Source of the DNA: Neonectria sp. B-13
Taxonomy: Eukaryota; Ascomycota; Sordariomycetes; Hypocreales; Nectriaceae
Length of the DNA: 64,000 nucleotides
Direction: 5' to 3'
NCBI GenBank assembly: GCA_002682825.1
Contig: NOKP01000041.1
Coordinates: 62,001-126,000 of the forward strand
The notes under the pieces are model-generated. The model was not told the DNA's origin. It made no database searches and was given only the letters and a program-made list of their open reading frames with translations. Below are positions 1-35,321 of the stretch, one piece after another. The position numbers and the translations under genes were made by a program. How positions within the stretch are numbered: position 1 is the first letter of the stretch; each line of letters starts with the position of its first letter.

Positions 1-919
1 TTCAGGAGTAAACGAAAACGAAAGTAAGTTGCGTCCTGCTGGCTGAAAACCGAAAGCTTGTCACCATTTATGCGCAACGTCACCAGGAAATACGGAGTAC
101 TTGGAAATTGCAGACCGGGTTTAATGATGAATGCCTCTACCCCTCGTATGGTGTTGGTCCAAAGTTGTCTTGTTCCAGGAAGACAAATTACCAGACGAAG
201 TTCATTAAAGCCCTCACGAGCTCATGTACTGGGGAGTGGCACGGTTTTCAAGCAGGTGTCACCTCACGCACAGTCTGCCAAGATTTAAGCATGCCACGAT
301 GCGAATGCGTCGCCAGGATAGCCAAGAGCCCGGCATCTATCGTCGACTCTCCGGTGTTGCATCTGCTCCTGGGACATTCTAGCCAAGCAACATGGATCGC
401 GGCAATGAGATGCACATCAGACACCAAGAACTTGGCGCTTCTTTAGACTGTTACTCAATCGCCCACGATCGTCTCAAAGCCCGAACCTCTCGTTACGTCG
501 CAAAATTGCCCTGACCCCACAAACGGTGGCGATCTGCGGGGGAGTTGGGATTGTCCATTTGGCCCGGACCCTGAGTCCCCGGGGTAGTTCGGGACTTCCA
601 TGCATGTCGGGTGGTTATTAGCTAAGAGACTCCTGTTCGGCCTCGGTTCACTCGTTTCTGGCGTGGACTCTCGGGGATCTGAGCAATCCATTACGCCGAC
701 GTGCAGTCCAAACCCGGATGATTATCTTGGTCCTTTCCTTTCTCTACTTGCCTATGGCTGGACACCATGTGGAGCGAGAGCGCCGATGCGGGGCTGTCTG
801 GGGTAACACTCTATTTGCTCTCCGTGACCGCTCAACAGTTAGGTAACTATTACCTAAAATCCTTTTTGCTGGGAGTAAAAATCTCTTCTTCTAAATGACC
901 ATGAAAAGAGTCGCCCGAG

Positions 920-926
920 TATATAA
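920..926 (+). promoter_or_regulatory. TATA box candidate of the acetate permease gene
   Basis: TATATAA lies 83 bp before the ATG at 1003, a usual distance for a fungal core promoter. The mirrored copy is at 34396-34402. Positions 1-919 contain only short incoherent frames and nothing I recognise. Confidence 0.45.
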
Positions 927-1002
927 GAATGGAAGCCAACTACTCGAGAGAGTATTCAAACCCGGTCAGCTACCGTGATTGTCAGCAAATCTCCACCTGA
1001 AA

Positions 1003-2006
1003 ATGTCGTCAAAGCGTGATGAAGAATGCATGTCCATGCCCATCTCAACGACTTCGAGTCTGGGGCATCGAATCGGAAACCCTGTAAGAGATCCACCACG
1101 TTCCTTATCTCTAGTCCTCAGCCAAGATGGTCATCGCTTACTCTGTTTCAATGTGTAAAGTCACCACTAGCCATGGGGGGTTTTGCCACCACCCTTCTGA
1201 CCCTGTCACTGGCCATGATGGGCTTTCGGGGCGTGGAAACTCAAACTGTTTTTATTGCCAATCTTTGCTTCGCCGCTGGCATAGGCATGCTCATCTCTGC
1301 TCAATGGGAGATGGTTAGAGGCAATACGTTTGGTTACACGTCGCTTAGCGCCTTTGGTCCGTCTTCTTCGAGGTCCAATGTCTCGTTTTGCTGAATATCA
1401 TGGTCGATGTTTCTCATCGCCATGGAATTACTCAGCTTTACTGCCAAAACTTGACTAACTGTTCTTTGTAGCGCTCTTCTACGGCGGATACGGTGTTATC
1501 CTAGCCCCGTCCTTGGGTGTTCTTGAATCGTACGGTGGTGCAACTGCCGAGTATCACAATGCCATGGGATTCTTCATTCTCAGTAATTACTTTCGGCGTC
1601 TATCAGCTCCATCAAAAATAACTAACAAATTTTCTACAGTCTGGGCAGTCTTGGATATTTTCTTCATGATCGGGTCCTTACCCATGTAAGTGTTATACGG
1701 TTCCGCCCGTCGTCTTCATCGTTTGCTAACTGGCATGTCCCCCTCTCCAGTAACCTGGTTTCATTTGGTATCTTTACTACCATTGAACTTTGCTTTTCTC
1801 TTGACGCTGCGTCGAACTTTGCTCTTGCCGATGGCAAGGAGGAGGTTGCAAGGGCATTGATGAAAGCTGCTGGAGCTTTCGGTTTTATCTCTGGGCTGCT
1901 TGGTTACTACAGCTGTGCCGCTTCCATGTGCCAGGATGCGCTGCCCTTCTCACTTCCAGTTGGAGACACGTCCCGGTTCTTCCAGAAATATCGCAAGAGC
2001 GCATGA
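1003..2006 (+). CDS. GPR1/FUN34/YaaH family acetate transporter
   Basis: Plasma-membrane acetate/proton symporter or acetate-sensing protein of the AceTr family (yeast Ady2, Aspergillus AcpA). Five exons join in frame to 229 aa: 1003-1083, 1161-1356, 1472-1582, 1640-1685 and 1751-2006. Joining exons 1 and 2 recreates the family signature NPSPLAMGGF (NPxPLG-type motif). The conserved stretch QWEMVRGNTFGYT follows, then several hydrophobic segments (about six expected) with LFYGGYGV and IWAVLDIFF. The N-terminal tail of about 27 residues is short and cytosolic-like. The intron at 1357-1471 has a clear TTGACTAAC branch site. The gene is convergent with the MFS carrier that follows. Family assignment is firm; the substrate (acetate, other short acids or ammonium) is inferred. 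The mirrored copy is identical. Confidence 0.9.
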
Positions 2007-2433
2007 AACTTGATATCACACATACGGTTGAACCCAGTCGGTGAATGGAGGAAAACAGCATCTATATCAGGTCCAGGGCACAGAGATGGATTCAGACGTC
2101 ATGTATCTAGTTGATCTTGGCTATATGAAAATGATGACTTTCAACGACGCGTTGTTTGAGCAGGGGGAGCTCGGTAACCTATTGAACCCTCAGCTACAAA
2201 CCCAAGGTTACATGGCGTGCACAAGGAGCAAGGCTGGCGAAGTTTCCAGAGTATTCGAAGTATCTGATAAGGGGTGGCTAAGACTGAGCTTGGTCACAAT
2301 TGTTCCATTGTGCGCTGAAAATTCGCCTTCGAAGGTAACGGGTTTTGGAACACAAGATGGTAACGTGTTGTCTTGATCTGTAGTACTAGGTACTAAAGGC
2401 TATAGAAATAGAAGAGCGTATCGTAGTATAAAG

Positions 2434-4155
2434 TTAGATAGGATAAATGAAGAAAGGGTTTTCCAAGTCAGTCAAGTCCAACATCGCAATGTCAACCTTT
2501 CTGCGAACTAAAACCCCGGCTTCATCGCGCTGCTCCACCTCTCCAAATTGATGGTCTCGCTTTTCCTCCTCACTCAGCCCAGACGCCCAGGCCTTGCGGA
2601 TGGCATTTCGCTTCTTCAGAATGAACTGGATCCAAAACAGAATCAAAGGGGTACCGATCCAGCTGATAACAATTTGCGAAATCCAAGCCCCGTAATAGCG
2701 TGGCGCATCTCTGGGAACCCAGATCTGAGGCGATATCAGATTCGCGACACTGTATCCAATCATGAACATGACGTTGCGTGTGAGCTTCTTCGTATAACCC
2801 GCCGAAGAAGACGTGGCCCATCCCAGTGCGATGATGTAGGTGTTACCGTACGTGTGACCGGCGAGAAGTAGGCATGCTAACATGCCAGTCTTTTCGTTCC
2901 AGTCTATAGTCACCATACCAATGCCACCTGCAACGGCAGGTAGACACCAAACCAAGCCGTGGAGGGCAAGATTCTTAGGCCACCACTTGAGAGCAAAGGT
3001 ACCAGCGAGGCAGACAACAATGCCGAATCCGCCACCTGCTGCAGCCACGAGAGTCGAGCCTAAGCTGGTGACGCCAAGCGCTTTAGTGATCAAGTTTTGT
3101 TGTCCGTACGTCAGGTTGTTTGACATCATGAGCGTAAATGCCTGTAGGGTGAACAGCCACGAAACAGGATCTTTGAGAGTCTCGACGCATTGAGACTTCT
3201 TGAAATGCTTCTGCTCGATGGAGCTCTGGCTAGATTCATGAACACGTTGGATGACGTGGACTTTCTCCTCCAAAGTCAGAAACCTTGCTTCGGCAGGGTT
3301 GTTTGGGTAGTAGAACCACACAACGATGGAAAGCAGTACGGAGACACCACCAGTGACGATCATGAAGAGCTTCCAGGGCAGAATGTAACTGTGACTCCAA
3401 AGCAAGCCGTACGATATGAAGGCTGCACAGACAGGCGCGGCCGCGGCGGTTGCCCACAGGAAGGGTTGAAGAAATGACTGCTCATGACGATTGAAGAACA
3501 TGCCGATAGTCATTTCCATGGCTGGGACAACAACAGACTCGCTTGCACCTAGAAGTAGTCGGAGTACTACGAGACCTGCGTACGTTGTCGCCGCGCAGTG
3601 TAGGAGAACAGTGGCACCCCACATAAAGATGAGGCCAGCCACAAATTTGCCAAACGGCAGTCTTTGCATGGCATAGTGCCCAGGCCATTGCGCAGCGAGA
3701 TATCCTAACAGCACGGGAAACTGTGAGATCGCGTCTTGCAAGAACACAGCACTTGGATTTCGAGTAGGCATTACTTACCGACGTAAAAGAAGGTTCCAAG
3801 ATTGTTATATTGGCCTTTGTCGATGCCCGTCTCCTCAAACAGTCCCAAGATAGCAGCGTATCCGAGAGTTGATTTGTCGATCTAACAATGTCAACAGGAG
3901 CTTCTTTCATGGATAGAAGTGTAATTAACTTACGAAAAGAAGCAAGTTTATGGCCGAAAGAAGACCCATGACATTGATGTATAGTTTTCGTCGTAGTCGT
4001 TTCTCCTTTTCGGGAGTCAATGGGCCAAAGTCCCCTCCATGATCCTCGATAATCCGTAATGTGACATCGGCATACTTTTCAGCGACGACAGTCGTTTCGC
4101 CCGGAGTGTCCTGGCCGCCCTCGACCTTGACCTTTATGTCGTTGCTAGCACCCAT
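2434..4155 (-). CDS. MFS transporter, allantoate permease (Dal5)-like anion:cation symporter
   Basis: Membrane carrier of the ACS/Dal5 branch of the major facilitator superfamily, which imports organic anions such as allantoate, ureidosuccinate or vitamin-like acids. Three exons (3934-4155, 3779-3881, 2434-3704) give 531 aa. Exon 1 is a cytosolic N-terminus rich in charged residues plus the start of the first membrane segment. Exon 2 encodes [14 protein letters not shown] and LGTFFYVG. Exon 3 carries [11 protein letters not shown], the [11 protein letters not shown] segment and the [14 protein letters not shown] segment typical of this group, a central charged loop (about 215-260), then the second six-helix bundle. 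The C-terminus [13 protein letters not shown] fits the usual Dal5-like ending. Intron donors are GTAAGT. A single TGATAA (GATA-factor type) lies near 4234 upstream, too weak alone to claim nitrogen control. Substrate unknown. Confidence 0.92.
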
Positions 4156-7100
4156 CTCCAGTCTCTAGACGGCTGTCTGAATGACACAGAAGAGGTTCGT
4201 TGAAGTGAGAGGTGAAAGACGAATATGCTTGGCTGATAAAACTGATCCAAATCTGTCCCAGTTAATTTAGCACCGTGGTTCATGCAGCTTTAATACGGCG
4301 GGCCACTGAGCAGCATGAGCCCATTGTCACGCCAGGAAATGTGGACTTGACGGATTAGCTTTTAAGAGCACTGCGTGGCAAAATTTCTTCCTGGATTTCT
4401 CATTGGCTTTGCTCGCTTTTTTCGTGTAGTTGCAGTTCATGGTGACAGTGGGTGGACCTCTTGCGTGATTGCAGAGAATTAGCACTCAACGTGGTTTCTG
4501 GGATATTGGCCCACTATAGCACTCATGGATCTCAGCCGACTGGCTCCGAGTCATCGCCATCCCCTGCACTTGGGGGAACGTGCCCGAACGGGCGTCTTAG
4601 CAGGGTCCAGATGATGCCATATCAAAGAATGGAGTAGGGAACTCGTGAATGCGCTCGTGTCATGCAATCCGTGAGAATTTCGCTCACTGCTCAAGAACAG
4701 CGGTTCCACTTGGCTCGGTGACTATACGGCGATTAATCTCGAGTGTCAGCGCTTGTGATTCGTAATCGATTGCGCTTGATGTTAACTAGTTAACTGTACT
4801 GGGAAGCCGAAGTCGGATAAGTCTTTCAATATTCAATCACATTATGGATTCTGAGATGCTACAAGTCAGCCATCTGGAACTCGTGTCACGAATTCATAGC
4901 CCATACCTTTTGTTAGCTAGCAATCACTTTCGGTAGTCGGGGGTGATCTAGAGAAGGTCAATGGGAGGTTCAACTTCGTAACACAATCTCATGACGAAGT
5001 TGCTGTAAGGCCTTGGCCTTCATCAGAGAATAGGAGACGATGACGGGGTAGTTTTGGTTCGAACACTGCTTGATAGCCATGAATTTCTTTGTAAGAACAG
5101 GTGTTTCCCTACGCAATCGCACATCGCGTTGAAGAGGAAAAGGTTGACATTGATCTCAGCTACATAGCCATTCTTTTGGAATCATGTACTAGTTGACTTG
5201 ATTGGGGTGACTTTGCGGTCGTACATGTTAGAGCGACGACGGAAGCGGAATTTTGCATCGAGCGCATCCATATCGAGAAACGAACTGGGTACTTTGATAT
5301 TGCGCGACGGGAACTATGAAATAGCTCAGTCATACGAAAAATCTCCGGGCGACCCCATCTCCTGTAACATCTCTGGGCCACAGGCTTGCTGGTTATTCGC
5401 GATGGGCAAGACTAGAAGAAAACATCATGACAAGTTATCAACTTAACGACCAATTAGTGCCTGGCTTGAACCAGTTTTGTACGTTCATGTGTTCTGTGAC
5501 TACGCCAGGAGCATGGTGTTCAGTTTACATTCTTCAGTCGCGTGGCCAGATATTACACAACGCACATGTCCCGGAAATAACTATCCGCGACCTAGTGACA
5601 ACACGGTTTGTACGTAGGATGAAGGAGCATACGAGACAAAGGACACAATAGATCAACGACAACGGAATCAGGAAGAGAAGGAAGGACATGTCCTGGCGAT
5701 GGAATACGATTCATAGACCTCTGTTCGAGTATTAGACAGTTCTATTCCTGTTCGAGTGGTTAGTTCATATCTTAGTGGAAACGAGTTCAAAGGGTGATCT
5801 GCGAGACACCAATACAAGCAGAAGACGTAAGGTTGATGTTGTGTTGTTTGACGCCGGCAGGTTCTAGTAGGATAAAAGGCGCCTATCTAACTACCTACAT
5901 CTCTATTGTAAAATTCCGTCAAAGTCTAGACAAAATAGGAACGGCAGGTATGAAAGGAAATGAGATTAGGTTCTATCGCTTTGTCATATGTTATACATAC
6001 GTAAACGGGGGAAGTAAAAAGTTGAGGTGTAGGGTAGGTTACCCACGTTGAACAGGAGGTCTTTCAGGGGTCCGGGAGAAGACAGACAGATCAAAAGATA
6101 GGAAAAGGTCGAGAAAACGAGGTAGTGAGCTAAACTAGCTACGGGGTGAATCTTCCCTTATGTACACAGTGATATTATTCTTTTCCTTCCTATCCATTTC
6201 CATGATTGCGTTGGCATAGCTGTTGTCATGCCGAATGCTTGCTTGCAAGATGTCTGCTGCCGCGACCGGCACGTGACATCTTTGGCGGATGCCTTCAACA
6301 CACGTGGACAATATCTAGTGGGATTTGTGATCACACGTAAGACGTAAGGTAAAGGATGGAAAGAGATTGCTACTGAGATTGGCATTGAGTAAGAATTCTG
6401 GACACAGATGCCCTCCATGCTCACGCTAGCAAGCTTATCCAACGTGGTGCAAAACGATAGGTAGAAATCTTAGCAATAATTAGGCGCCAATGGATGGTCT
6501 GTGGAGCGATCTGGTCTGGTGAAGTGATGAAAGGAGTACGCTCATCTTAGAAATCTTCCTCGACGACTCCGGCGCATTCCTGGTTAACTCTAATAACTAC
6601 TCTGCAAACGAGATACTGAAGTGACGTCGTGTATATTCAGATTAAATCCGATTCACGTCGGCAGCTCTCTTAGCCCCGTGGTCGTTGCTCGATGGCCGCT
6701 GATGTCAGTTCTAATGCGATAAACTAATAAGTGATCCTTTGTGACTTGTGAGGCGGGCTTAGTTCGGAGATCTTCTTCGCACTAATTATGACAAACTTTG
6801 GAGTACTGTATTGTCTTTCACAAGAGGAAGCGAGAGGGTTAAGAAGTTGGATTACAAACAAACCAGGCATTAACGAATTGAAACTTGGTTCGCAAGGTGG
6901 CGCAGCGATCGACGATGGATCAACCCGAGGCGCCCGGACTAAGCTTGAACAAGACGCAGTCGTTTCAGCTCAGCTTTATGCATATTCATCTCACAAGTTT
7001 CCACATGCATGAGAGACGTGCTACTGAAACTTCCGACCTCACAAAGAGACAAGAAGAGTACGGAAAATGGATCTAGGTGGCCACTAGGCACTTGTTCACC

Positions 7101-8018
7101 TTTTATGTGATTGTTCTTGGACCCAGTTTCCATCTCATTCTAAGAAACTTGCTTTGAACTCCAATGCAACGGTCGTGGTGTAGTGTACTTCGTACGCGGC
7201 GTGATTATCCCTCTTAGGAGCATCCATGTTCCTTTGACGGAAAAACTGTTCTGTTCGAGCCGTACAGCGACCAATCTCGTTTCCAGGAGTACCACAGGGC
7301 TCTGATGGACTAAGGTGAAGTGTTATAGGTCGATCATTTGGTGCAGGCATTGACATGAAACTTGAAATGGAGTCTATGTTACAAATCATTTGCATATTAT
7401 TCGGCGAGGGGATGTAGTTGCGGGGACTGTTTCGAGTGGGAACTATGCCAAGGACAAGGATGTCATTTGCAGCGACAGCCCGGGACACGCCATTGGCGGG
7501 CTTAATAAACAAGGACGACCAGGTTTATCTGAAACGAAGCAGTGATACGGTAAAGACGCTTGGATTAAAAATCTCCTTGGTGGGACAATCCACGACTCCT
7601 AGTCTAGTTCCACCAACCCCGGCTTATCTGTGTGCATCCCTTGATATTAAGGAAGCTTACTTCTCTAGGTCCGATGCACTGCGCTGGGATATGTCAAGCT
7701 ATGTTGTTTCGGAGCTTCCGAATCCTCTAAGGGGGATGTCAACCACAAGGGCAAGTGCAAGGGAGCGAGGACGCATATAACGTCTACAAGAGCCGCGTCG
7801 TTACAAACTCTTCCATCGAACATTGAGTCGCATCTTGACTGCATTCTTTCACTTCTGAGTCGCCGCGAGTACGGTGTTTTTCCTTCGTTTGTTCCCTTTC
7901 TGACCCTGGTGGTCGTTCATTCTCTATTTGCATACATTCATTTTGACTCCGAGCCGTTCTTTCACCCGCTTCTCGTTCAAGTACTCGACCATTCATTCAA
8001 CTCGAAGCAATCTCAACC
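4156..8018 (+). other. 3.9-kb gene-poor region between MFS carrier and cellobiose dehydrogenase
   Basis: The longest open frames here are 120-125 codons, lack family resemblance and overlap each other on opposite strands. I see no tRNA, transposon ends, tandem repeats or conserved protein. The part near 4156-4300 is the MFS promoter, and the part near 7750-8018 is the cellobiose dehydrogenase promoter and 5-prime UTR (a CATATAA occurs near 7773). The rest could hold distal regulatory DNA or a noncoding transcript, but the sequence alone does not show it. Confidence 0.5.
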
Positions 8019-10430
8019 ATGCGTTGCACACTCTCTGGGGCAGCAGCCCTGCTCGGCTTGGTTGGAAAAGCCACAGCGGCGCTTGCGACTACAGCCTACA
8101 ATGACCCTCTGACGGGCATCGACTTCCAGCGGTATCAGTCCGCCGGATACAGCTTTGGCATTGCGGTGCCAGAGACTGTCGGCTCTGACTTTATCGGTCA
8201 GATGGTGGTCCCACTCACCGACGCTGGAGGATGGGGTGCTGTTTCGCTCAAGGGAGGCATGTTGAACGGCCTCCTCTTTGTGACCTGGGCAGACGGCGAC
8301 GACATCATTACCTCGTTCCGACTTGCTGGATCGTATGCCAACCCGGACGTCTACTCGGACACGGAAGTTAGCGCACTGCCAATCGCCAACGGCACCTTTG
8401 TCAACAGCACTCACTTGTCGTACACCTTCCTCTGCGAGGGCTGCATCATTGCCAACAAGACGAGCTTCGCCAACACGAACCCTATCCTCGGATGGGCCAT
8501 TTCTGCTGAGGACCCTACCACCGTTTCGGACCCTGAAAGCGCCCTGTCCTACCATGCTGCCGGCTTTGGCCAGTTCGGTCTCGACTTGGCTTCGGCCAAG
8601 TCTGCTGAGTACGCTCAGTGGGCTTCGTGGGCCGCTGCCACTACGCCCGGGACAGGATCTGGAGGCAACACCACTGTGCCCGGTGGAAACAGTACTATTC
8701 CTGTGCCTACCGTCTCCAACTTAACCTACGACGTCATCGTGGTAGGCGGCGGCCCTGCCGGTATCATTGCCGCCGAGCGCCTTGCTGAGTCCGGCGCAAG
8801 TGTCCTCCTCATTGAGAGAGGTCCGGCGAACACGGTCGCCCTGGGTTCTGCTCAGGCCTTGCCCTGGAACGATACCTTGACCCCGTACGACATCCCCAGT
8901 CTCGGCAGCAGCATGACCAGCGTCGCGGGCACCAAGTTCTGCAGCGACACTGCTTCCACTGCTGGCTGCCTCTTGGGCGGATCAAGCTCCATCAACGGCC
9001 TGAACTTCATCCACCCCCCGGAGCGTGACTGGCAAGGTTGGCCTGCGGGATGGAAATGGGCCGACGTGTCAGGGGCAGCTGATCGCCTCTACGAGCGCAA
9101 CCCTGGCACGACAGCTCCCTCTGACGACGGCAAGTACTATGACGACCGTACCTTCAAGGTCTTGTCTTCGTTGCTCGATTCCAAGGGTTGGGCCGAGGTT
9201 GACTCGATTGAATCACCCAACGAGAAGCACATGGCCTACTCTCGCCCCTCTTGGTCTATCAAGGACAACCTTCGTGCCGGGCCTGCTCGGTCATACATGC
9301 CTTTTGCTGAGAAGTTGCCCAACTTCACCTTGAAGCTCAACACCAAGGTCATCCAAACCATCCGCACCGGCAGCACCATCACCGGAGTCCTCACTCTTGC
9401 AGAGAATGGTAGCACACAAATCATCAATGTCAAGACAGGTGGCAAGGTCGTCCTCGCCGCCGGTGCCATGTCGACGCCGCGACTTCTCTGGAACTCCGGC
9501 ATCGGTCGGGCTGATGCCTTGGCCATCGTCGAGAGCGGATCGGCCAAGACTGGCGTGACTCTCCCCGCAGAAGACGACTGGATTGATCTCCCTGTTGGCC
9601 ATCACCTCCAGGACCACGCACAGGTTATGCTGCAGTTTACGTCCACGACCAACTTTACCGCATACAACTTCAACGGCATCGCTGTGGACCCCGTCGCGGC
9701 CGATCTGGACCTGTACTACCAAGGCTCCGGCCCCATCACCCAGGCGGCACAGCGCATGCACCTGTGGACATCGGTAGAGGGTGCCGATGGGCGTACTCGT
9801 TATCTCCAGGGCACCGCGAGCGCCATGGCGTCGGGTATCGTTACTGTGCGCACCTTCTTGACCCACGGCACCAGCACAGTCGGTGAGCTGGGCATCTCGG
9901 CGTCCGGAAACACTCTCCTCAACACCAAGCCGTGGCTGATTGACGAAAACGACCGCAAGGCCATGTCCGGCTTTGTTCAGTGGTGGCTCGATCTCACTGG
10001 CAGCAACAACTCGACGCTGAAGTACATCACCCCCAACGCCACAGTTGAAGACATCATCTCTTCCAAGATGATCAGCGGTGACCACTGGGTTGGTAGCGCC
10101 AAGATGGGTGGTGATGATGGACGAAACGCCAACGGCTCCAGCGTCGTCGACTTGAACACCAAGGTGTATGGCACGGATAACTTGTTCGTTGTTGACGCGT
10201 CTATTCACCCTGAGCTGCCCACTGGTAACACCCAGTCCATCATTATGATCACGGCCGAGCACGCCGCCAAGAAGATTGCCAGCTTCAACGTCAGCGACTC
10301 TGGTTCCGGCTCCAGCTCCGGTTCCGGCTCAACGGGTGCTTCCAAGTGCCGCAGAGGACTCAGAGCCCACAACCACGCCAGGAGGGGATTCCACTGGAAG
10401 AGCGGCGCACGAATTAGGAGCGGATATTAG
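8019..10430 (+). CDS. cdh: Cellobiose dehydrogenase (secreted haem-flavin enzyme), no CBM1
   Basis: Extracellular flavocytochrome that oxidises cellobiose and other beta-linked sugars to lactones and passes electrons to lytic polysaccharide monooxygenases or quinones. One uninterrupted 803-codon frame. Residues 1-21 are a signal peptide. About 22-205 form the cytochrome domain, with likely haem ligands Met81 (in GGMLNG) and His179 (in SYHAAGFG). A Gly/Thr/Asn/Pro-rich linker covers about 207-233. The GMC flavodehydrogenase starts with the FAD dinucleotide fold VIVVGGGPAG (240-249) and ends near 767. Catalytic His is about 689 (DHWVGSAKMG) and Asn about 737 (ELPTGNTQ). A Ser/Gly stretch and a basic tail end the protein, with no carbohydrate-binding module. 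The start ATG follows CAACC and precedes the signal peptide directly. An AATAAA lies about 100 bp after the stop. No introns, unlike its neighbours. Confidence 0.95.
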   Translation: MRCTLSGAAALLGLVGKATAALATTAYNDPLTGIDFQRYQSAGYSFGIAVPETVGSDFIGQMVVPLTDAGGWGAVSLKGGMLNGLLFVTWADGDDIITSFRLAGSYANPDVYSDTEVSALPIANGTFVNSTHLSYTFLCEGCIIANKTSFANTNPILGWAISAEDPTTVSDPESALSYHAAGFGQFGLDLASAKSAEYAQWASWAAATTPGTGSGGNTTVPGGNSTIPVPTVSNLTYDVIVVGGGPAGIIAAERLAESGASVLLIERGPANTVALGSAQALPWNDTLTPYDIPSLGSSMTSVAGTKFCSDTASTAGCLLGGSSSINGLNFIHPPERDWQGWPAGWKWADVSGAADRLYERNPGTTAPSDDGKYYDDRTFKVLSSLLDSKGWAEVDSIESPNEKHMAYSRPSWSIKDNLRAGPARSYMPFAEKLPNFTLKLNTKVIQTIRTGSTITGVLTLAENGSTQIINVKTGGKVVLAAGAMSTPRLLWNSGIGRADALAIVESGSAKTGVTLPAEDDWIDLPVGHHLQDHAQVMLQFTSTTNFTAYNFNGIAVDPVAADLDLYYQGSGPITQAAQRMHLWTSVEGADGRTRYLQGTASAMASGIVTVRTFLTHGTSTVGELGISASGNTLLNTKPWLIDENDRKAMSGFVQWWLDLTGSNNSTLKYITPNATVEDIISSKMISGDHWVGSAKMGGDDGRNANGSSVVDLNTKVYGTDNLFVVDASIHPELPTGNTQSIIMITAEHAAKKIASFNVSDSGSGSSSGSGSTGASKCRRGLRAHNHARRGFHWKSGARIRSGY

Positions 10431-11143
10431 ATGCCGTCAATGGCACTAGCTTAGCTGATGCTACGGTTGTCTCTTTAGGCCATCTTGAAGCATGCCTTCC
10501 ATTCTCGACATGTATAAATTTTAGTCTGGTAAATAAATCATCAAGACCTTCCATCGTTGTCCAAAACATCAATATAGCCCGCAGCCCCTTCTAGAGCATT
10601 TAAAGATCCGAAGTTGAGCATGGACCCTGAAATCTGGAAAAGGAACATCAACTCCGCAACAGAGTGGCCTACTTCTACTCTAACCGCTAAAGGATGACCA
10701 AAGTCCGCATCATCTCCACAGACGGACATTTGCTAAGCGTGTCAAGTCTGCTGTTCACACTGTAGATCCAACTGCGCAACTCCGCAGAGTGACTCCGCCG
10801 ACCGGAATCCCTGCGTGAATCTATTAGGCCCATCACTGGCATTCATGGACGAATAATTAGGCGAAAGTTGCGGAGAAGCCTCAGACTCCGCACTCTAACC
10901 TAGCAATAACGTTGTTTACGTTGCATTCCCTTGCCTCGAATGATTCACTTCTTTGGTGATCCATGGTGGTGCTACTGGGGTCTTCAAAATGCTCAGTCGA
11001 TAGAGTTTGGGTGATGCTTATAAGTAGCTAGAAACCTCCGCAAGTACAGTTGCATCATATTCGCACACCCAGCCTATTCCATCCCATCGTGCTTCACAAC
11101 AGCTGGGACTTCGGGAGGCAAAGGCAACCTTCGCCCAGCAGCC
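10431..11143 (+). other. Intergenic region, cdh 3-prime end and GST promoter
   Basis: Contains the probable polyadenylation region of the cellobiose dehydrogenase gene (AATAAA at 10532-10537) and the upstream region of the glutathione transferase gene. The motif CTCCGCA recurs several times in either orientation between about 10650 and 10900; its meaning is unknown. No coding sequence recognised. Confidence 0.5.
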
Positions 11144-11981: not shown

Positions 11982-12208
11982 AAGGGGCAGCATAGGAAGC
12001 ATTCAGACCGAAGATTGTTAGTTCTCATCGATTATAAGTATCATGTTACCTCCATCGGTGCTTGCCACATATGCAATACTCTATTTCTAGCTTCTATTTC
12101 ATGGCAGATTGTGAAAGCTGCATCAAGAAGTTGTACACTGCTGTCACCGTAGACTGACCATTGCAAGTCCTGTACGTGTTCCAGTACGAATATCAGACCG
12201 GCGATGAA

Positions 12209-12641: not shown

Positions 12642-12822
12642 AGGAGGTTGACGCCAACGTGTAGTACTCACCACTCTCACGAGCCGCAAACCAATATATA
12701 TATCTATATAAGTCAACAAACGTAGTTTTATTCACAATTCTAGCACCTACAATAGCGCATATGATTTTGCTTAGATTTCTATTTGGACCTCAAACAACAA
12801 AGTTATGCGCAATTTATTTTTC

Positions 12823-24178: not shown

Positions 24179-24891
24179 GGCTGCTGGGCGAAGGTTGCCT
24201 TTGCCTCCCGAAGTCCCAGCTGTTGTGAAGCACGATGGGATGGAATAGGCTGGGTGTGCGAATATGATGCAACTGTACTTGCGGAGGTTTCTAGCTACTT
24301 ATAAGCATCACCCAAACTCTATCGACTGAGCATTTTGAAGACCCCAGTAGCACCACCATGGATCACCAAAGAAGTGAATCATTCGAGGCAAGGGAATGCA
24401 ACGTAAACAACGTTATTGCTAGGTTAGAGTGCGGAGTCTGAGGCTTCTCCGCAACTTTCGCCTAATTATTCGTCCATGAATGCCAGTGATGGGCCTAATA
24501 GATTCACGCAGGGATTCCGGTCGGCGGAGTCACTCTGCGGAGTTGCGCAGTTGGATCTACAGTGTGAACAGCAGACTTGACACGCTTAGCAAATGTCCGT
24601 CTGTGGAGATGATGCGGACTTTGGTCATCCTTTAGCGGTTAGAGTAGAAGTAGGCCACTCTGTTGCGGAGTTGATGTTCCTTTTCCAGATTTCAGGGTCC
24701 ATGCTCAACTTCGGATCTTTAAATGCTCTAGAAGGGGCTGCGGGCTATATTGATGTTTTGGACAACGATGGAAGGTCTTGATGATTTATTTACCAGACTA
24801 AAATTTATACATGTCGAGAATGGAAGGCATGCTTCAAGATGGCCTAAAGAGACAACCGTAGCATCAGCTAAGCTAGTGCCATTGACGGCAT

Positions 24892-27303
24892 CTAATATCC
24901 GCTCCTAATTCGTGCGCCGCTCTTCCAGTGGAATCCCCTCCTGGCGTGGTTGTGGGCTCTGAGTCCTCTGCGGCACTTGGAAGCACCCGTTGAGCCGGAA
25001 CCGGAGCTGGAGCCGGAACCAGAGTCGCTGACGTTGAAGCTGGCAATCTTCTTGGCGGCGTGCTCGGCCGTGATCATAATGATGGACTGGGTGTTACCAG
25101 TGGGCAGCTCAGGGTGAATAGACGCGTCAACAACGAACAAGTTATCCGTGCCATACACCTTGGTGTTCAAGTCGACGACGCTGGAGCCGTTGGCGTTTCG
25201 TCCATCATCACCACCCATCTTGGCGCTACCAACCCAGTGGTCACCGCTGATCATCTTGGAAGAGATGATGTCTTCAACTGTGGCGTTGGGGGTGATGTAC
25301 TTCAGCGTCGAGTTGTTGCTGCCAGTGAGATCGAGCCACCACTGAACAAAGCCGGACATGGCCTTGCGGTCGTTTTCGTCAATCAGCCACGGCTTGGTGT
25401 TGAGGAGAGTGTTTCCGGACGCCGAGATGCCCAGCTCACCGACTGTGCTGGTGCCGTGGGTCAAGAAGGTGCGCACAGTAACGATACCCGACGCCATGGC
25501 GCTCGCGGTGCCCTGGAGATAACGAGTACGCCCATCGGCACCCTCTACCGATGTCCACAGGTGCATGCGCTGTGCCGCCTGGGTGATGGGGCCGGAGCCT
25601 TGGTAGTACAGGTCCAGATCGGCCGCGACGGGGTCCACAGCGATGCCGTTGAAGTTGTATGCGGTAAAGTTGGTCGTGGACGTAAACTGCAGCATAACCT
25701 GTGCGTGGTCCTGGAGGTGATGGCCAACAGGGAGATCAATCCAGTCGTCTTCTGCGGGGAGAGTCACGCCAGTCTTGGCCGATCCGCTCTCGACGATGGC
25801 CAAGGCATCAGCCCGACCGATGCCGGAGTTCCAGAGAAGTCGCGGCGTCGACATGGCACCGGCGGCGAGGACGACCTTGCCACCTGTCTTGACATTGATG
25901 ATTTGTGTGCTACCATTCTCTGCAAGAGTGAGGACTCCGGTGATGGTGCTGCCGGTGCGGATGGTTTGGATGACCTTGGTGTTGAGCTTCAAGGTGAAGT
26001 TGGGCAACTTCTCAGCAAAAGGCATGTATGACCGAGCAGGCCCGGCACGAAGGTTGTCCTTGATAGACCAAGAGGGGCGAGAGTAGGCCATGTGCTTCTC
26101 GTTGGGTGATTCAATCGAGTCAACCTCGGCCCAACCCTTGGAATCGAGCAACGAAGACAAGACCTTGAAGGTACGGTCGTCATAGTACTTGCCGTCGTCA
26201 GAGGGAGCTGTCGTGCCAGGGTTGCGCTCGTAGAGGCGATCAGCTGCCCCTGACACGTCGGCCCATTTCCATCCCGCAGGCCAACCTTGCCAGTCACGCT
26301 CCGGGGGGTGGATGAAGTTCAGGCCGTTGATGGAGCTTGATCCGCCCAAGAGGCAGCCAGCAGTGGAAGCAGTGTCGCTGCAGAACTTGGTGCCCGCGAC
26401 GCTGGTCATGCTGCTGCCGAGACTGGGGATGTCGTACGGGGTCAAGGTATCGTTCCAGGGCAAGGCCTGAGCAGAACCCAGGGCGACCGTGTTCGCCGGA
26501 CCTCTCTCAATGAGGAGGACACTTGCGCCGGACTCAGCAAGGCGCTCGGCGGCAATGATACCGGCAGGGCCGCCGCCTACCACGATGACGTCGTAGGTTA
26601 AGTTGGAGACGGTAGGCACAGGAATAGTACTGTTTCCACCGGGCACAGTGGTGTTGCCTCCAGATCCTGTCCCGGGCGTAGTGGCAGCGGCCCACGAAGC
26701 CCACTGAGCGTACTCAGCAGACTTGGCCGAAGCCAAGTCGAGACCGAACTGGCCAAAGCCGGCAGCATGGTAGGACAGGGCGCTTTCAGGGTCCGAAACG
26801 GTGGTAGGGTCCTCAGCAGAAATGGCCCATCCGAGGATAGGGTTCGTGTTGGCGAAGCTCGTCTTGTTGGCAATGATGCAGCCCTCGCAGAGGAAGGTGT
26901 ACGACAAGTGAGTGCTGTTGACAAAGGTGCCGTTGGCGATTGGCAGTGCGCTAACTTCCGTGTCCGAGTAGACGTCCGGGTTGGCATACGATCCAGCAAG
27001 TCGGAACGAGGTAATGATGTCGTCGCCGTCTGCCCAGGTCACAAAGAGGAGGCCGTTCAACATGCCTCCCTTGAGCGAAACAGCACCCCATCCTCCAGCG
27101 TCGGTGAGTGGGACCACCATCTGACCGATAAAGTCAGAGCCGACAGTCTCTGGCACCGCAATGCCAAAGCTGTATCCGGCGGACTGATACCGCTGGAAGT
27201 CGATGCCCGTCAGAGGGTCATTGTAGGCTGTAGTCGCAAGCGCCGCTGTGGCTTTTCCAACCAAGCCGAGCAGGGCTGCTGCCCCAGAGAGTGTGCAACG
27301 CAT
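24892..27303 (-). CDS. cdh: Cellobiose dehydrogenase (mirror copy)
   Basis: Identical 803-aa frame to that at 8019-10430, including signal peptide, haem domain, linker and GMC domain. No silent or coding difference from the left copy is visible, so a count of two cellobiose dehydrogenase genes should not be drawn from this window. Confidence 0.95.
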   Translation of the reverse strand: MRCTLSGAAALLGLVGKATAALATTAYNDPLTGIDFQRYQSAGYSFGIAVPETVGSDFIGQMVVPLTDAGGWGAVSLKGGMLNGLLFVTWADGDDIITSFRLAGSYANPDVYSDTEVSALPIANGTFVNSTHLSYTFLCEGCIIANKTSFANTNPILGWAISAEDPTTVSDPESALSYHAAGFGQFGLDLASAKSAEYAQWASWAAATTPGTGSGGNTTVPGGNSTIPVPTVSNLTYDVIVVGGGPAGIIAAERLAESGASVLLIERGPANTVALGSAQALPWNDTLTPYDIPSLGSSMTSVAGTKFCSDTASTAGCLLGGSSSINGLNFIHPPERDWQGWPAGWKWADVSGAADRLYERNPGTTAPSDDGKYYDDRTFKVLSSLLDSKGWAEVDSIESPNEKHMAYSRPSWSIKDNLRAGPARSYMPFAEKLPNFTLKLNTKVIQTIRTGSTITGVLTLAENGSTQIINVKTGGKVVLAAGAMSTPRLLWNSGIGRADALAIVESGSAKTGVTLPAEDDWIDLPVGHHLQDHAQVMLQFTSTTNFTAYNFNGIAVDPVAADLDLYYQGSGPITQAAQRMHLWTSVEGADGRTRYLQGTASAMASGIVTVRTFLTHGTSTVGELGISASGNTLLNTKPWLIDENDRKAMSGFVQWWLDLTGSNNSTLKYITPNATVEDIISSKMISGDHWVGSAKMGGDDGRNANGSSVVDLNTKVYGTDNLFVVDASIHPELPTGNTQSIIMITAEHAAKKIASFNVSDSGSGSSSGSGSTGASKCRRGLRAHNHARRGFHWKSGARIRSGY

Positions 27304-30300
27304 GGTTGAGATTGCTTCGAGTTGAATGAATGGTCGAGTACTTGAACGAGAAGCGGGTGAAAGAACGGCTCGGAGTCAAAATGAATGTATGCAAATAGAG
27401 AATGAACGACCACCAGGGTCAGAAAGGGAACAAACGAAGGAAAAACACCGTACTCGCGGCGACTCAGAAGTGAAAGAATGCAGTCAAGATGCGACTCAAT
27501 GTTCGATGGAAGAGTTTGTAACGACGCGGCTCTTGTAGACGTTATATGCGTCCTCGCTCCCTTGCACTTGCCCTTGTGGTTGACATCCCCCTTAGAGGAT
27601 TCGGAAGCTCCGAAACAACATAGCTTGACATATCCCAGCGCAGTGCATCGGACCTAGAGAAGTAAGCTTCCTTAATATCAAGGGATGCACACAGATAAGC
27701 CGGGGTTGGTGGAACTAGACTAGGAGTCGTGGATTGTCCCACCAAGGAGATTTTTAATCCAAGCGTCTTTACCGTATCACTGCTTCGTTTCAGATAAACC
27801 TGGTCGTCCTTGTTTATTAAGCCCGCCAATGGCGTGTCCCGGGCTGTCGCTGCAAATGACATCCTTGTCCTTGGCATAGTTCCCACTCGAAACAGTCCCC
27901 GCAACTACATCCCCTCGCCGAATAATATGCAAATGATTTGTAACATAGACTCCATTTCAAGTTTCATGTCAATGCCTGCACCAAATGATCGACCTATAAC
28001 ACTTCACCTTAGTCCATCAGAGCCCTGTGGTACTCCTGGAAACGAGATTGGTCGCTGTACGGCTCGAACAGAACAGTTTTTCCGTCAAAGGAACATGGAT
28101 GCTCCTAAGAGGGATAATCACGCCGCGTACGAAGTACACTACACCACGACCGTTGCATTGGAGTTCAAAGCAAGTTTCTTAGAATGAGATGGAAACTGGG
28201 TCCAAGAACAATCACATAAAAGGTGAACAAGTGCCTAGTGGCCACCTAGATCCATTTTCCGTACTCTTCTTGTCTCTTTGTGAGGTCGGAAGTTTCAGTA
28301 GCACGTCTCTCATGCATGTGGAAACTTGTGAGATGAATATGCATAAAGCTGAGCTGAAACGACTGCGTCTTGTTCAAGCTTAGTCCGGGCGCCTCGGGTT
28401 GATCCATCGTCGATCGCTGCGCCACCTTGCGAACCAAGTTTCAATTCGTTAATGCCTGGTTTGTTTGTAATCCAACTTCTTAACCCTCTCGCTTCCTCTT
28501 GTGAAAGACAATACAGTACTCCAAAGTTTGTCATAATTAGTGCGAAGAAGATCTCCGAACTAAGCCCGCCTCACAAGTCACAAAGGATCACTTATTAGTT
28601 TATCGCATTAGAACTGACATCAGCGGCCATCGAGCAACGACCACGGGGCTAAGAGAGCTGCCGACGTGAATCGGATTTAATCTGAATATACACGACGTCA
28701 CTTCAGTATCTCGTTTGCAGAGTAGTTATTAGAGTTAACCAGGAATGCGCCGGAGTCGTCGAGGAAGATTTCTAAGATGAGCGTACTCCTTTCATCACTT
28801 CACCAGACCAGATCGCTCCACAGACCATCCATTGGCGCCTAATTATTGCTAAGATTTCTACCTATCGTTTTGCACCACGTTGGATAAGCTTGCTAGCGTG
28901 AGCATGGAGGGCATCTGTGTCCAGAATTCTTACTCAATGCCAATCTCAGTAGCAATCTCTTTCCATCCTTTACCTTACGTCTTACGTGTGATCACAAATC
29001 CCACTAGATATTGTCCACGTGTGTTGAAGGCATCCGCCAAAGATGTCACGTGCCGGTCGCGGCAGCAGACATCTTGCAAGCAAGCATTCGGCATGACAAC
29101 AGCTATGCCAACGCAATCATGGAAATGGATAGGAAGGAAAAGAATAATATCACTGTGTACATAAGGGAAGATTCACCCCGTAGCTAGTTTAGCTCACTAC
29201 CTCGTTTTCTCGACCTTTTCCTATCTTTTGATCTGTCTGTCTTCTCCCGGACCCCTGAAAGACCTCCTGTTCAACGTGGGTAACCTACCCTACACCTCAA
29301 CTTTTTACTTCCCCCGTTTACGTATGTATAACATATGACAAAGCGATAGAACCTAATCTCATTTCCTTTCATACCTGCCGTTCCTATTTTGTCTAGACTT
29401 TGACGGAATTTTACAATAGAGATGTAGGTAGTTAGATAGGCGCCTTTTATCCTACTAGAACCTGCCGGCGTCAAACAACACAACATCAACCTTACGTCTT
29501 CTGCTTGTATTGGTGTCTCGCAGATCACCCTTTGAACTCGTTTCCACTAAGATATGAACTAACCACTCGAACAGGAATAGAACTGTCTAATACTCGAACA
29601 GAGGTCTATGAATCGTATTCCATCGCCAGGACATGTCCTTCCTTCTCTTCCTGATTCCGTTGTCGTTGATCTATTGTGTCCTTTGTCTCGTATGCTCCTT
29701 CATCCTACGTACAAACCGTGTTGTCACTAGGTCGCGGATAGTTATTTCCGGGACATGTGCGTTGTGTAATATCTGGCCACGCGACTGAAGAATGTAAACT
29801 GAACACCATGCTCCTGGCGTAGTCACAGAACACATGAACGTACAAAACTGGTTCAAGCCAGGCACTAATTGGTCGTTAAGTTGATAACTTGTCATGATGT
29901 TTTCTTCTAGTCTTGCCCATCGCGAATAACCAGCAAGCCTGTGGCCCAGAGATGTTACAGGAGATGGGGTCGCCCGGAGATTTTTCGTATGACTGAGCTA
30001 TTTCATAGTTCCCGTCGCGCAATATCAAAGTACCCAGTTCGTTTCTCGATATGGATGCGCTCGATGCAAAATTCCGCTTCCGTCGTCGCTCTAACATGTA
30101 CGACCGCAAAGTCACCCCAATCAAGTCAACTAGTACATGATTCCAAAAGAATGGCTATGTAGCTGAGATCAATGTCAACCTTTTCCTCTTCAACGCGATG
30201 TGCGATTGCGTAGGGAAACACCTGTTCTTACAAAGAAATTCATGGCTATCAAGCAGTGTTCGAACCAAAACTACCCCGTCATCGTCTCCTATTCTCTGAT

Positions 30301-31166
30301 GAAGGCCAAGGCCTTACAGCAACTTCGTCATGAGATTGTGTTACGAAGTTGAACCTCCCATTGACCTTCTCTAGATCACCCCCGACTACCGAAAGTGATT
30401 GCTAGCTAACAAAAGGTATGGGCTATGAATTCGTGACACGAGTTCCAGATGGCTGACTTGTAGCATCTCAGAATCCATAATGTGATTGAATATTGAAAGA
30501 CTTATCCGACTTCGGCTTCCCAGTACAGTTAACTAGTTAACATCAAGCGCAATCGATTACGAATCACAAGCGCTGACACTCGAGATTAATCGCCGTATAG
30601 TCACCGAGCCAAGTGGAACCGCTGTTCTTGAGCAGTGAGCGAAATTCTCACGGATTGCATGACACGAGCGCATTCACGAGTTCCCTACTCCATTCTTTGA
30701 TATGGCATCATCTGGACCCTGCTAAGACGCCCGTTCGGGCACGTTCCCCCAAGTGCAGGGGATGGCGATGACTCGGAGCCAGTCGGCTGAGATCCATGAG
30801 TGCTATAGTGGGCCAATATCCCAGAAACCACGTTGAGTGCTAATTCTCTGCAATCACGCAAGAGGTCCACCCACTGTCACCATGAACTGCAACTACACGA
30901 AAAAAGCGAGCAAAGCCAATGAGAAATCCAGGAAGAAATTTTGCCACGCAGTGCTCTTAAAAGCTAATCCGTCAAGTCCACATTTCCTGGCGTGACAATG
31001 GGCTCATGCTGCTCAGTGGCCCGCCGTATTAAAGCTGCATGAACCACGGTGCTAAATTAACTGGGACAGATTTGGATCAGTTTTATCAGCCAAGCATATT
31101 CGTCTTTCACCTCTCACTTCAACGAACCTCTTCTGTGTCATTCAGACAGCCGTCTAGAGACTGGAG
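27304..31166 (-). other. Gene-poor region (mirror of 4156-8018)
   Basis: Reverse complement of the left-arm gene-poor block. No gene, RNA or mobile element recognised beyond the two flanking promoters. Confidence 0.5.
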
Positions 31167-32888
31167 ATGGGTGCTAGCAACGACATAAAGGTCAAGGTCG
31201 AGGGCGGCCAGGACACTCCGGGCGAAACGACTGTCGTCGCTGAAAAGTATGCCGATGTCACATTACGGATTATCGAGGATCATGGAGGGGACTTTGGCCC
31301 ATTGACTCCCGAAAAGGAGAAACGACTACGACGAAAACTATACATCAATGTCATGGGTCTTCTTTCGGCCATAAACTTGCTTCTTTTCGTAAGTTAATTA
31401 CACTTCTATCCATGAAAGAAGCTCCTGTTGACATTGTTAGATCGACAAATCAACTCTCGGATACGCTGCTATCTTGGGACTGTTTGAGGAGACGGGCATC
31501 GACAAAGGCCAATATAACAATCTTGGAACCTTCTTTTACGTCGGTAAGTAATGCCTACTCGAAATCCAAGTGCTGTGTTCTTGCAAGACGCGATCTCACA
31601 GTTTCCCGTGCTGTTAGGATATCTCGCTGCGCAATGGCCTGGGCACTATGCCATGCAAAGACTGCCGTTTGGCAAATTTGTGGCTGGCCTCATCTTTATG
31701 TGGGGTGCCACTGTTCTCCTACACTGCGCGGCGACAACGTACGCAGGTCTCGTAGTACTCCGACTACTTCTAGGTGCAAGCGAGTCTGTTGTTGTCCCAG
31801 CCATGGAAATGACTATCGGCATGTTCTTCAATCGTCATGAGCAGTCATTTCTTCAACCCTTCCTGTGGGCAACCGCCGCGGCCGCGCCTGTCTGTGCAGC
31901 CTTCATATCGTACGGCTTGCTTTGGAGTCACAGTTACATTCTGCCCTGGAAGCTCTTCATGATCGTCACTGGTGGTGTCTCCGTACTGCTTTCCATCGTT
32001 GTGTGGTTCTACTACCCAAACAACCCTGCCGAAGCAAGGTTTCTGACTTTGGAGGAGAAAGTCCACGTCATCCAACGTGTTCATGAATCTAGCCAGAGCT
32101 CCATCGAGCAGAAGCATTTCAAGAAGTCTCAATGCGTCGAGACTCTCAAAGATCCTGTTTCGTGGCTGTTCACCCTACAGGCATTTACGCTCATGATGTC
32201 AAACAACCTGACGTACGGACAACAAAACTTGATCACTAAAGCGCTTGGCGTCACCAGCTTAGGCTCGACTCTCGTGGCTGCAGCAGGTGGCGGATTCGGC
32301 ATTGTTGTCTGCCTCGCTGGTACCTTTGCTCTCAAGTGGTGGCCTAAGAATCTTGCCCTCCACGGCTTGGTTTGGTGTCTACCTGCCGTTGCAGGTGGCA
32401 TTGGTATGGTGACTATAGACTGGAACGAAAAGACTGGCATGTTAGCATGCCTACTTCTCGCCGGTCACACGTACGGTAACACCTACATCATCGCACTGGG
32501 ATGGGCCACGTCTTCTTCGGCGGGTTATACGAAGAAGCTCACACGCAACGTCATGTTCATGATTGGATACAGTGTCGCGAATCTGATATCGCCTCAGATC
32601 TGGGTTCCCAGAGATGCGCCACGCTATTACGGGGCTTGGATTTCGCAAATTGTTATCAGCTGGATCGGTACCCCTTTGATTCTGTTTTGGATCCAGTTCA
32701 TTCTGAAGAAGCGAAATGCCATCCGCAAGGCCTGGGCGTCTGGGCTGAGTGAGGAGGAAAAGCGAGACCATCAATTTGGAGAGGTGGAGCAGCGCGATGA
32801 AGCCGGGGTTTTAGTTCGCAGAAAGGTTGACATTGCGATGTTGGACTTGACTGACTTGGAAAACCCTTTCTTCATTTATCCTATCTAA
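31167..32888 (+). CDS. Dal5-like MFS transporter (mirror copy)
   Basis: Identical to the gene at 2434-4155. Exons 31167-31388, 31441-31543 and 31618-32888 code for 531 aa. Donors are GTAAGT at both introns, and the acceptors TTAG precede exons 2 and 3. Confidence 0.92.
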
Positions 32889-33315
32889 CTTTATACTACG
32901 ATACGCTCTTCTATTTCTATAGCCTTTAGTACCTAGTACTACAGATCAAGACAACACGTTACCATCTTGTGTTCCAAAACCCGTTACCTTCGAAGGCGAA
33001 TTTTCAGCGCACAATGGAACAATTGTGACCAAGCTCAGTCTTAGCCACCCCTTATCAGATACTTCGAATACTCTGGAAACTTCGCCAGCCTTGCTCCTTG
33101 TGCACGCCATGTAACCTTGGGTTTGTAGCTGAGGGTTCAATAGGTTACCGAGCTCCCCCTGCTCAAACAACGCGTCGTTGAAAGTCATCATTTTCATATA
33201 GCCAAGATCAACTAGATACATGACGTCTGAATCCATCTCTGTGCCCTGGACCTGATATAGATGCTGTTTTCCTCCATTCACCGACTGGGTTCAACCGTAT
33301 GTGTGATATCAAGTT

Positions 33316-34319
33316 TCATGCGCTCTTGCGATATTTCTGGAAGAACCGGGACGTGTCTCCAACTGGAAGTGAGAAGGGCAGCGCATCCTGGCACATGGAA
33401 GCGGCACAGCTGTAGTAACCAAGCAGCCCAGAGATAAAACCGAAAGCTCCAGCAGCTTTCATCAATGCCCTTGCAACCTCCTCCTTGCCATCGGCAAGAG
33501 CAAAGTTCGACGCAGCGTCAAGAGAAAAGCAAAGTTCAATGGTAGTAAAGATACCAAATGAAACCAGGTTACTGGAGAGGGGGACATGCCAGTTAGCAAA
33601 CGATGAAGACGACGGGCGGAACCGTATAACACTTACATGGGTAAGGACCCGATCATGAAGAAAATATCCAAGACTGCCCAGACTGTAGAAAATTTGTTAG
33701 TTATTTTTGATGGAGCTGATAGACGCCGAAAGTAATTACTGAGAATGAAGAATCCCATGGCATTGTGATACTCGGCAGTTGCACCACCGTACGATTCAAG
33801 AACACCCAAGGACGGGGCTAGGATAACACCGTATCCGCCGTAGAAGAGCGCTACAAAGAACAGTTAGTCAAGTTTTGGCAGTAAAGCTGAGTAATTCCAT
33901 GGCGATGAGAAACATCGACCATGATATTCAGCAAAACGAGACATTGGACCTCGAAGAAGACGGACCAAAGGCGCTAAGCGACGTGTAACCAAACGTATTG
34001 CCTCTAACCATCTCCCATTGAGCAGAGATGAGCATGCCTATGCCAGCGGCGAAGCAAAGATTGGCAATAAAAACAGTTTGAGTTTCCACGCCCCGAAAGC
34101 CCATCATGGCCAGTGACAGGGTCAGAAGGGTGGTGGCAAAACCCCCCATGGCTAGTGGTGACTTTACACATTGAAACAGAGTAAGCGATGACCATCTTGG
34201 CTGAGGACTAGAGATAAGGAACGTGGTGGATCTCTTACAGGGTTTCCGATTCGATGCCCCAGACTCGAAGTCGTTGAGATGGGCATGGACATGCATTCTT
34301 CATCACGCTTTGACGACAT
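33316..34319 (-). CDS. GPR1/FUN34/YaaH acetate transporter (mirror copy)
   Basis: Identical to the gene at 1003-2006. Exons 34239-34319, 33966-34161, 33740-33850, 33637-33682 and 33316-33571 code for 229 aa. From here to the arm end at 35321 only the promoter region (TATA candidate at 34396-34402) is seen. Confidence 0.9.
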
Positions 34320-35321
34320 TTTCAGGTGGAGATTTGCTGACAATCACGGTAGCTGACCGGGTTTGAATACTCTCTCGAGTAGTTGGCTTCCATTCTTATA
34401 TACTCGGGCGACTCTTTTCATGGTCATTTAGAAGAAGAGATTTTTACTCCCAGCAAAAAGGATTTTAGGTAATAGTTACCTAACTGTTGAGCGGTCACGG
34501 AGAGCAAATAGAGTGTTACCCCAGACAGCCCCGCATCGGCGCTCTCGCTCCACATGGTGTCCAGCCATAGGCAAGTAGAGAAAGGAAAGGACCAAGATAA
34601 TCATCCGGGTTTGGACTGCACGTCGGCGTAATGGATTGCTCAGATCCCCGAGAGTCCACGCCAGAAACGAGTGAACCGAGGCCGAACAGGAGTCTCTTAG
34701 CTAATAACCACCCGACATGCATGGAAGTCCCGAACTACCCCGGGGACTCAGGGTCCGGGCCAAATGGACAATCCCAACTCCCCCGCAGATCGCCACCGTT
34801 TGTGGGGTCAGGGCAATTTTGCGACGTAACGAGAGGTTCGGGCTTTGAGACGATCGTGGGCGATTGAGTAACAGTCTAAAGAAGCGCCAAGTTCTTGGTG
34901 TCTGATGTGCATCTCATTGCCGCGATCCATGTTGCTTGGCTAGAATGTCCCAGGAGCAGATGCAACACCGGAGAGTCGACGATAGATGCCGGGCTCTTGG
35001 CTATCCTGGCGACGCATTCGCATCGTGGCATGCTTAAATCTTGGCAGACTGTGCGTGAGGTGACACCTGCTTGAAAACCGTGCCACTCCCCAGTACATGA
35101 GCTCGTGAGGGCTTTAATGAACTTCGTCTGGTAATTTGTCTTCCTGGAACAAGACAACTTTGGACCAACACCATACGAGGGGTAGAGGCATTCATCATTA
35201 AACCCGGTCTGCAATTTCCAAGTACTCCGTATTTCCTGGTGACGTTGCGCATAAATGGTGACAAGCTTTCGGTTTTCAGCCAGCAGGACGCAACTTACTT
35301 TCGTTTTCGTTTACTCCTGAA

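What the first reader, a model, noticed from the sequence alone, without database searches (positions are those of the whole stretch)
1..35321. Giant palindrome: two 17.5-kb arms identical in reverse complement
Position x equals the complement of position 35322-x over at least 17511 bp, with no indel and with all mirrored reading frames identical. A 100-N gap sits at the centre. Either this is a scaffolding artefact (one contig contained in another, placed inverted) or a very young chromosomal palindrome. The artefact is far more likely, and all seven arm genes would then be counted twice.
Basis: partly seen in the sequence, partly recalled or inferred. Interest (0 to 1): 0.75.

Follow-up and report, generated by a model that had tools for sequence, protein, structure and literature searches.

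The report
Assembly artefact: scaffold mirrored on itself

Summary
The mirror repeat is in the file and exact: window 1-17511 is the perfect reverse complement of 17811-35321. But it is not a palindrome with 17.5-kb arms. The window is cut from a 263,685-base scaffold (C63) of a 60.9-Mb fungal assembly. Each arm is 79,511 bases and takes in all of window 35322-64000 too, whose partner lies outside the window. The rest of C63 is a second mirrored pair of 51,982 bases. All 24 mirror centres that I read, on 23 contigs, show the same join: exactly 100 N beside exactly 199 unpaired bases. For 12 of them the centre was predicted from equal-scoring gene pairs first, and 12 of 12 had it. Real palindromes at unrelated loci would not share a fixed spacer. 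199 is K-1 for a K=200 graph assembler. One small difference between arms that I resolved, in C114, is a poly-G length, as expected from a graph bubble at a homopolymer. Best explanation: an assembler of the DISCOVAR kind joined a graph edge to its own reverse complement over a 100-N gap. No raw reads were available.

The parts
1..17511 (+). Left copy, inner 17,511 bases of a 79,511-base arm (C63 62001-79511); lacks the last 199 bases next to the gap
17512..17611 (.). 100 N, gap placeholder
   Evidence: same length at 24 of 24 centres read
17612..17810 (.). 199 unpaired bases, CT-rich: the end of the edge that is kept only in the copy after the gap (K-1 for K=200)
   Evidence: 199 at 24 of 24 centres
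17811..35321 (-). Right copy of the arm as far as its partner lies inside the window
35322..64000 (-). Continuation of the right copy; its mirror image is C63 33322-62000, outside the window
   Evidence: two 2.5-kb pieces tested; the rest not read
8019..10430 (+). Cellobiose dehydrogenase gene (cytochrome domain plus GMC oxidoreductase), copy 1
24892..27303 (-). The same cellobiose dehydrogenase gene, duplicate made by the assembly
   Evidence: identical 803-aa product
2434..3771 (-). MFS transporter ORF, copy 1 (duplicate 31551-32888 +)
13087..14592 (-). Peptidase M3 gene in two ORF pieces 13087-13644 and 13747-14592 (duplicates 21678-22235 and 20730-21575 +)

Best explanation
Assembly artefact. 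A short-read graph assembler of the DISCOVAR de novo / w2rap kind (K=200) holds every edge together with its reverse complement. At the end of an edge that runs into a CT-rich stretch or a dispersed repeat, a gap edge was laid between the edge and its own reverse complement. The path edge - gap - reverse complement was then printed as one record: the first copy without its last K-1 = 199 bases, then 100 N, then the second copy in full. A later scaffolder strung such records together; in C63 the pair A/A' and the pair B/B' stand in a row across a 101-N gap. Shown: exact mirror, 100 N + 199 bases, recurrence on 23 contigs, contig breaks in a shared repeat, a poly-G length difference between arms of C114. 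Inferred: the identity of the program, the read-pair cause of the self-join, and that the organism holds one copy.
For: 24 of 24 mirror centres read on 23 contigs have exactly 100 N next to exactly 199 unpaired bases, with 0 mismatches in the 227 to 4,850 flanking bases compared at 22 of them and in the arms of C63. The 199 bases are right of the gap in 23 and left in 1 (C93). 12 of 12 centres predicted from equal-scoring gene pairs had the join, 10 of them at the exact predicted axis. Axis sum equals contig length + 1 in C47, C20, C55, C68, C117, C27, C36, C38, C41, C59, C72, C74, C95; it is off by exactly 199 in C54 and C69. Among 150 Zn-cluster matches, 29 equal-score pairs lie on one contig on opposite strands against 1 on the same strand. 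All 14 full-length 100% copies (197 bases or more) of a dispersed repeat found lie at a mirror centre (9) or a contig end (5). A' and B overlap by exactly 118 bases, less than 199, across their 101-N gap. C114 arms differ by 9 G in a poly-G run. PMC5411770 (section 7 read, passages; [quoted passage not shown]
Against: No reads, depth or assembly log were available, so a single-copy state was not measured. K=200 for DISCOVAR de novo is recalled; PMC5411770 itself gives k=48 for overlaps in Supernova and 200 only for joining paths. Why edges were joined to their own complement is not shown. Arms are not identical everywhere: axis shifts of 1 (C60) and 46 (C105) bases were seen and not resolved. 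Two of 12 loci with the repeat had no gap or mirror (C73, C51, both at contig ends).
Confidence: 0.97

Rival explanations
1. A real, very young chromosomal palindrome (inverted duplication of about 79.5 kb) that by chance ends at a sequencing gap.
For: The arms are exact reverse complements; inverted duplications exist in fungi (general knowledge).
Against: The identical 100 N + 199 layout at 24 of 24 centres read; arms that end exactly at contig ends in 13 contigs; a second mirrored pair in the same scaffold; and RIP-like base composition in the B half of C63, which suggests that duplicated DNA is mutated in this lineage, so dozens of spotless duplications are unlikely.
Confidence: 0.01
2. 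Two identical haplotypes or nuclei assembled apart and laid head to head by a Hi-C or reference-based scaffolder.
For: Whole contigs are doubled; such scaffolders also insert 100 N (PMC8290116, passages: MEDUSA, 100 Ns).
Against: Zero mismatches over 50,832 + 51,982 pairs read leaves no haplotype difference; doubled copies were always opposite-strand and adjacent, and always one shorter by exactly 199 bases, which a haplotype would not give.
Confidence: 0.015
3. A linear replicon with inverted or hairpin ends (C63 reads as X followed by its complement, circularly permuted).
For: A', B, B', A in a circle equals X and its reverse complement, with the 118-base overlap at both A/B contacts.
Against: The same join occurs on 23 contigs up to 5.6 Mb long, some with ordinary unmirrored remainder (C1, C50); no three-fold TTAGGG repeat in C63.
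Confidence: 0.005

Closest known systems
Reverse-complement edges and 100-N gap edges of DISCOVAR-type assembly graphs (PMC5411770: section 7 and passages read)
   Same: 100 N gaps, both strands held as edges, k-1 overlap, uncertain homopolymer lengths
   Different: Overlap here is 199 (K=200), where that paper's program uses k=48; its scaffold styles are said to drop reverse-complement edges, here they were not dropped
Palindromic contigs from assembly error in Mycobacterium bovis genomes (PMC9455707: one passage read)
   Same: Contigs mirrored on themselves, identical genes annotated twice, inflated gene counts
   Different: Bacterial genomes; the passage gives no gap or spacer signature
Artificial palindromes by erroneous scaffolding (PMC7953838: passages read)
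   Same: States that erroneous scaffolding can generate artificial palindromes in published assemblies
   Different: Animals; a caveat of method, no mechanism with a fixed 199-base spacer in the passages seen

Membership tests
Self-joined record of a K=200 graph assembler | Second copy is the exact reverse complement of the first | tested here: met
   0 mismatches in 50,832 and 51,982 pairs read
Self-joined record of a K=200 graph assembler | Gap of fixed 100 N | tested here: met
   24 of 24 centres
Self-joined record of a K=200 graph assembler | One copy shorter by K-1 = 199 bases at the gap | tested here: met
   24 of 24 centres; that K=200 is DISCOVAR's value is recalled
Self-joined record of a K=200 graph assembler | Breaks at repeats or hard sequence; arms differ only at bubbles such as homopolymers | tested here: inconclusive
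   9 of 14 full repeat copies at centres, 5 at contig ends; one poly-G difference resolved; shifts in C60 and C105 not resolved
Self-joined record of a K=200 graph assembler | Program named in the assembly record; reads place once | not testable with these tools
Real chromosomal palindrome | Centre and spacer particular to the locus; arm limits independent of contig limits | tested here: not met
   same 100 N + 199 everywhere; axis sum = contig length + 1 in 13 contigs
Real chromosomal palindrome | Spanning reads or PCR product across the centre | not testable with these tools
   no reads

The most novel reading that the evidence does not exclude
Most novel reading not excluded: some mirrored scaffolds rest on true inverted DNA, for example inverted repeats or fold-back fragments at the contig ends that gave real read pairs linking an edge to its own complement, so that part of this fungus's break points are genuine small palindromes.
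Probability: 0.03. Interest if true: 0.45.

Novelty: not a real feature. Interest (0 to 1): 0.06.

Why it matters
As biology it does not. As a warning it does: 18 contigs that look mirrored end to end sum to 12.7 Mb, so about 6.4 Mb (10% of the assembly) would be surplus (inferred from axes, lengths and ends, not read through). Gene counts, family expansions, segmental-duplication and RIP studies of this genome would be wrong, and the signature (100 N + 199 bases, axis = length + 1) is an easy screen for other assemblies made the same way.

Tried and rejected
Rejected: a 17.5-kb palindrome (the arm goes on beyond the window); haplotype duplication (no differences); linear replicon with hairpin ends (the same join on 23 contigs). 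My own error, corrected: the tool placed the window on the minus strand at C63 33322-97321; because of the mirror this is ambiguous, and searches show that it is C63 62001-126000, plus strand. So C63 33322-62000 was filled with inferred letters, and the gap of pair A stood on the wrong side; one search repeats the count without them.

Led nowhere: long queries of 14.7 and 14 kb did not list their own place, though they did show other mirrored pairs (C105, C54, C45); paper searches for the organism and its assembler and for false duplications gave no paper on this genome that I could recognise. Not tested: equal-score pairs on C35 (open frames of 266 and 608 aa, so probably a chance tie), a second C1 pair and three C39 tRNA pairs (probably chance ties), a second C105 axis (728209) and a C45 pair.

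Full report
What is in the sequence. Window 1-17511 and 17811-35321 are exact reverse complements, 17,511 of 17,511 positions (the only inverted repeat of that size). Between them are 100 N (17512-17611) and 199 unpaired bases (17612-17810), 75% C+T and 86% in the first 130. The 199 bases match only themselves in the assembly (that search skips simple repeats).

Where the window lies. The window belongs to contig C63 (263,685 bases) of an unnamed 60.9-Mb, 123-contig assembly. The tool gave the minus strand; searches show that it is C63 62001-126000, plus strand (the mirror makes the placing ambiguous). Genes point to a filamentous ascomycete: cellobiose dehydrogenase with CDH-cyt and GMC domains, Fungal_trans, TRI12. 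The nearest named relatives of the cellobiose dehydrogenase among the 120 of 659 hits listed are from Thelonectria (79%), Ilyonectria and Cylindrodendrum (78% each); an unnamed one has 93%. That suggests Nectriaceae, no more.

The whole scaffold. C63 = A 1-79511, 100 N, A' 79612-159321 (199 bases, then the reverse complement of A), 101 N, B 159423-211404, 100 N, B' 211505-263685 (199 bases, then the reverse complement of B). Of the A pairs 50,832 of 79,511 were read on both sides, of the B pairs 51,982 of 51,982: 0 mismatches. C63 33322-62000 was not read; two 2,501-base queries match there at 100%. A' end and B start overlap by exactly 118 bases, so they are probably true neighbours that a K=200 graph could not join; the 132-kb unit would then be about 131,773 bases (inferred).

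Not a single case. An MFS search scored 9 of 1,076 candidates and already showed two equal-score opposite-strand pairs, on C47 and C50. C47 runs mirrored from base 1 to its last base, 690559: the ends are complementary over the 1,560 bases compared, and the centre has 100 N + 199. C50 is mirrored from base 1 (2,024 bases compared) around 912012. I then looked at 10 loci that carry a dispersed repeat found at such centres: 8 had a gap, and all 8 were mirrored with 199 bases; C73 and C51 were contig ends without a gap. These loci were chosen for the repeat, so for a sample chosen without it I used 150 scored Zn-cluster matches (of 849 candidates) and 56 tRNA matches (63 of 1,967 candidates scored). 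Among the Zn-cluster matches 29 equal-score pairs are on one contig on opposite strands and 1 on the same strand; one of the 29 (C35) is probably a chance tie, and 27 of the other 28 lie about a centre that I read. From 12 contigs with such pairs I predicted the centre and fetched 799 bases: 12 of 12 had 100 N and 199 unpaired bases, 10 at the exact axis, C60 off by 1 and C105 by 46. Together that makes 24 centres on 23 contigs, 199 bases right of the gap in 23 and left in 1 (C93).

Not everything is mirrored: C39 (6.28 Mb) has many Zn-cluster matches and no Zn-cluster pair, and C1 is mirrored only in its first 489,703 of 5,582,916 bases by its axis.

What the numbers say. A fixed 199 at unrelated centres is a program's constant. 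It fits K-1 with K=200. [quoted passage not shown] There k is 48 for the overlap and 200 for joining paths. That DISCOVAR de novo and w2rap use K=200 is my recall; PMC8290116 (passages) says that w2rap extends DISCOVAR de novo. C54 and C69 are short by exactly 199 at one end, again K-1. In C114 the axis shifts by 9 bases; the cause is a poly-G run of 68 in one arm and 59 in the other, the kind of bubble that such a program leaves. Smaller open points: the shifts in C60 and C105.

Why the edges end there. All 14 full-length (197 bases or more) 100% copies of the dispersed repeat listed (40 of 81 candidates scored) sit at a mirror centre (9) or a contig end (5). The C63 window centre instead ends in CT-rich sequence. 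So edges end where short reads fail, and a gap was then bridged to the wrong partner, the edge's own complement. The read-pair cause is inferred.

RIP. The B half of C63 has G+C 0.33, TpA/ApT 1.38 and (CpA+TpG)/(ApC+GpT) 0.75, against 0.50, 0.76 and 1.22 in A'. By recalled thresholds this is RIP-like. It speaks mildly against large untouched duplications.

Extent. 18 contigs with an axis that spans the contig (C63 with its two pairs; C60, C114, C54, C69 with the small offsets named) sum to 12,731,628 bases, so about 6.37 Mb, 10.4% of the assembly, would be surplus. This is inferred from axes and lengths; arms other than those of C63 were not read through.

Literature. Palindromic contigs as assembly errors are in print: PMC9455707 (one passage) and the caution in PMC7953838 (passages). 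In ten searches I saw no description of the 100 N + 199 signature, but I read few of the listed papers.

Verdict. Artefact, ordinary in kind, systematic in this assembly. Confidence 0.97 for the artefact; about 0.75 that the program was DISCOVAR de novo or w2rap.

Noticed in passing
C63:211506-211703; C83:1-200; C65:1-197; C50:911963-912159 and others: A dispersed repeat of about 197 bases, 100% identical in 14 places, each at a mirror centre or contig end; diverged copies (81-91%) elsewhere. Perhaps the edge of a young transposable element; not identified.
   Followed up: partly
C63:159322-159422: 101 N, not 100, between A' and B although the two ends overlap by exactly 118 bases: a missed join, probably by a second scaffolding step.
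   Followed up: partly
C63:159423-211404: The B half is AT-rich (G+C 0.33) with RIP-like dinucleotide ratios and diverged internal repeats (84-91% alike); the A half is not.
   Followed up: partly
window 37713-43280 (-): A single 1,855-aa ORF with a nephrocystin-3-type NTPase domain and a long row of ankyrin repeats, as in fungal NLR-like proteins.
   Followed up: no
window 48855-49565 (+): ORF that matches DUF1961 over its whole length (353 bits).
   Followed up: no
C114:527640-528040 and 1048155-1048560: Poly-G run of 68 in one arm and 59 in the other, the cause of a 9-base axis shift.
   Followed up: yes
C105 (axes 728209 and 2539826/2539872) and C45 (axis 1140120): Further equal-score opposite-strand pairs that point to more mirrored records; the centres 728209 of C105 and that of C45 were not read.
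   Followed up: no
G000: C61, C62, C66, C75, C90 starts: These contigs begin with N in the first 1,290 to 2,000 bases fetched; withheld or unassembled, left alone.
   Followed up: no
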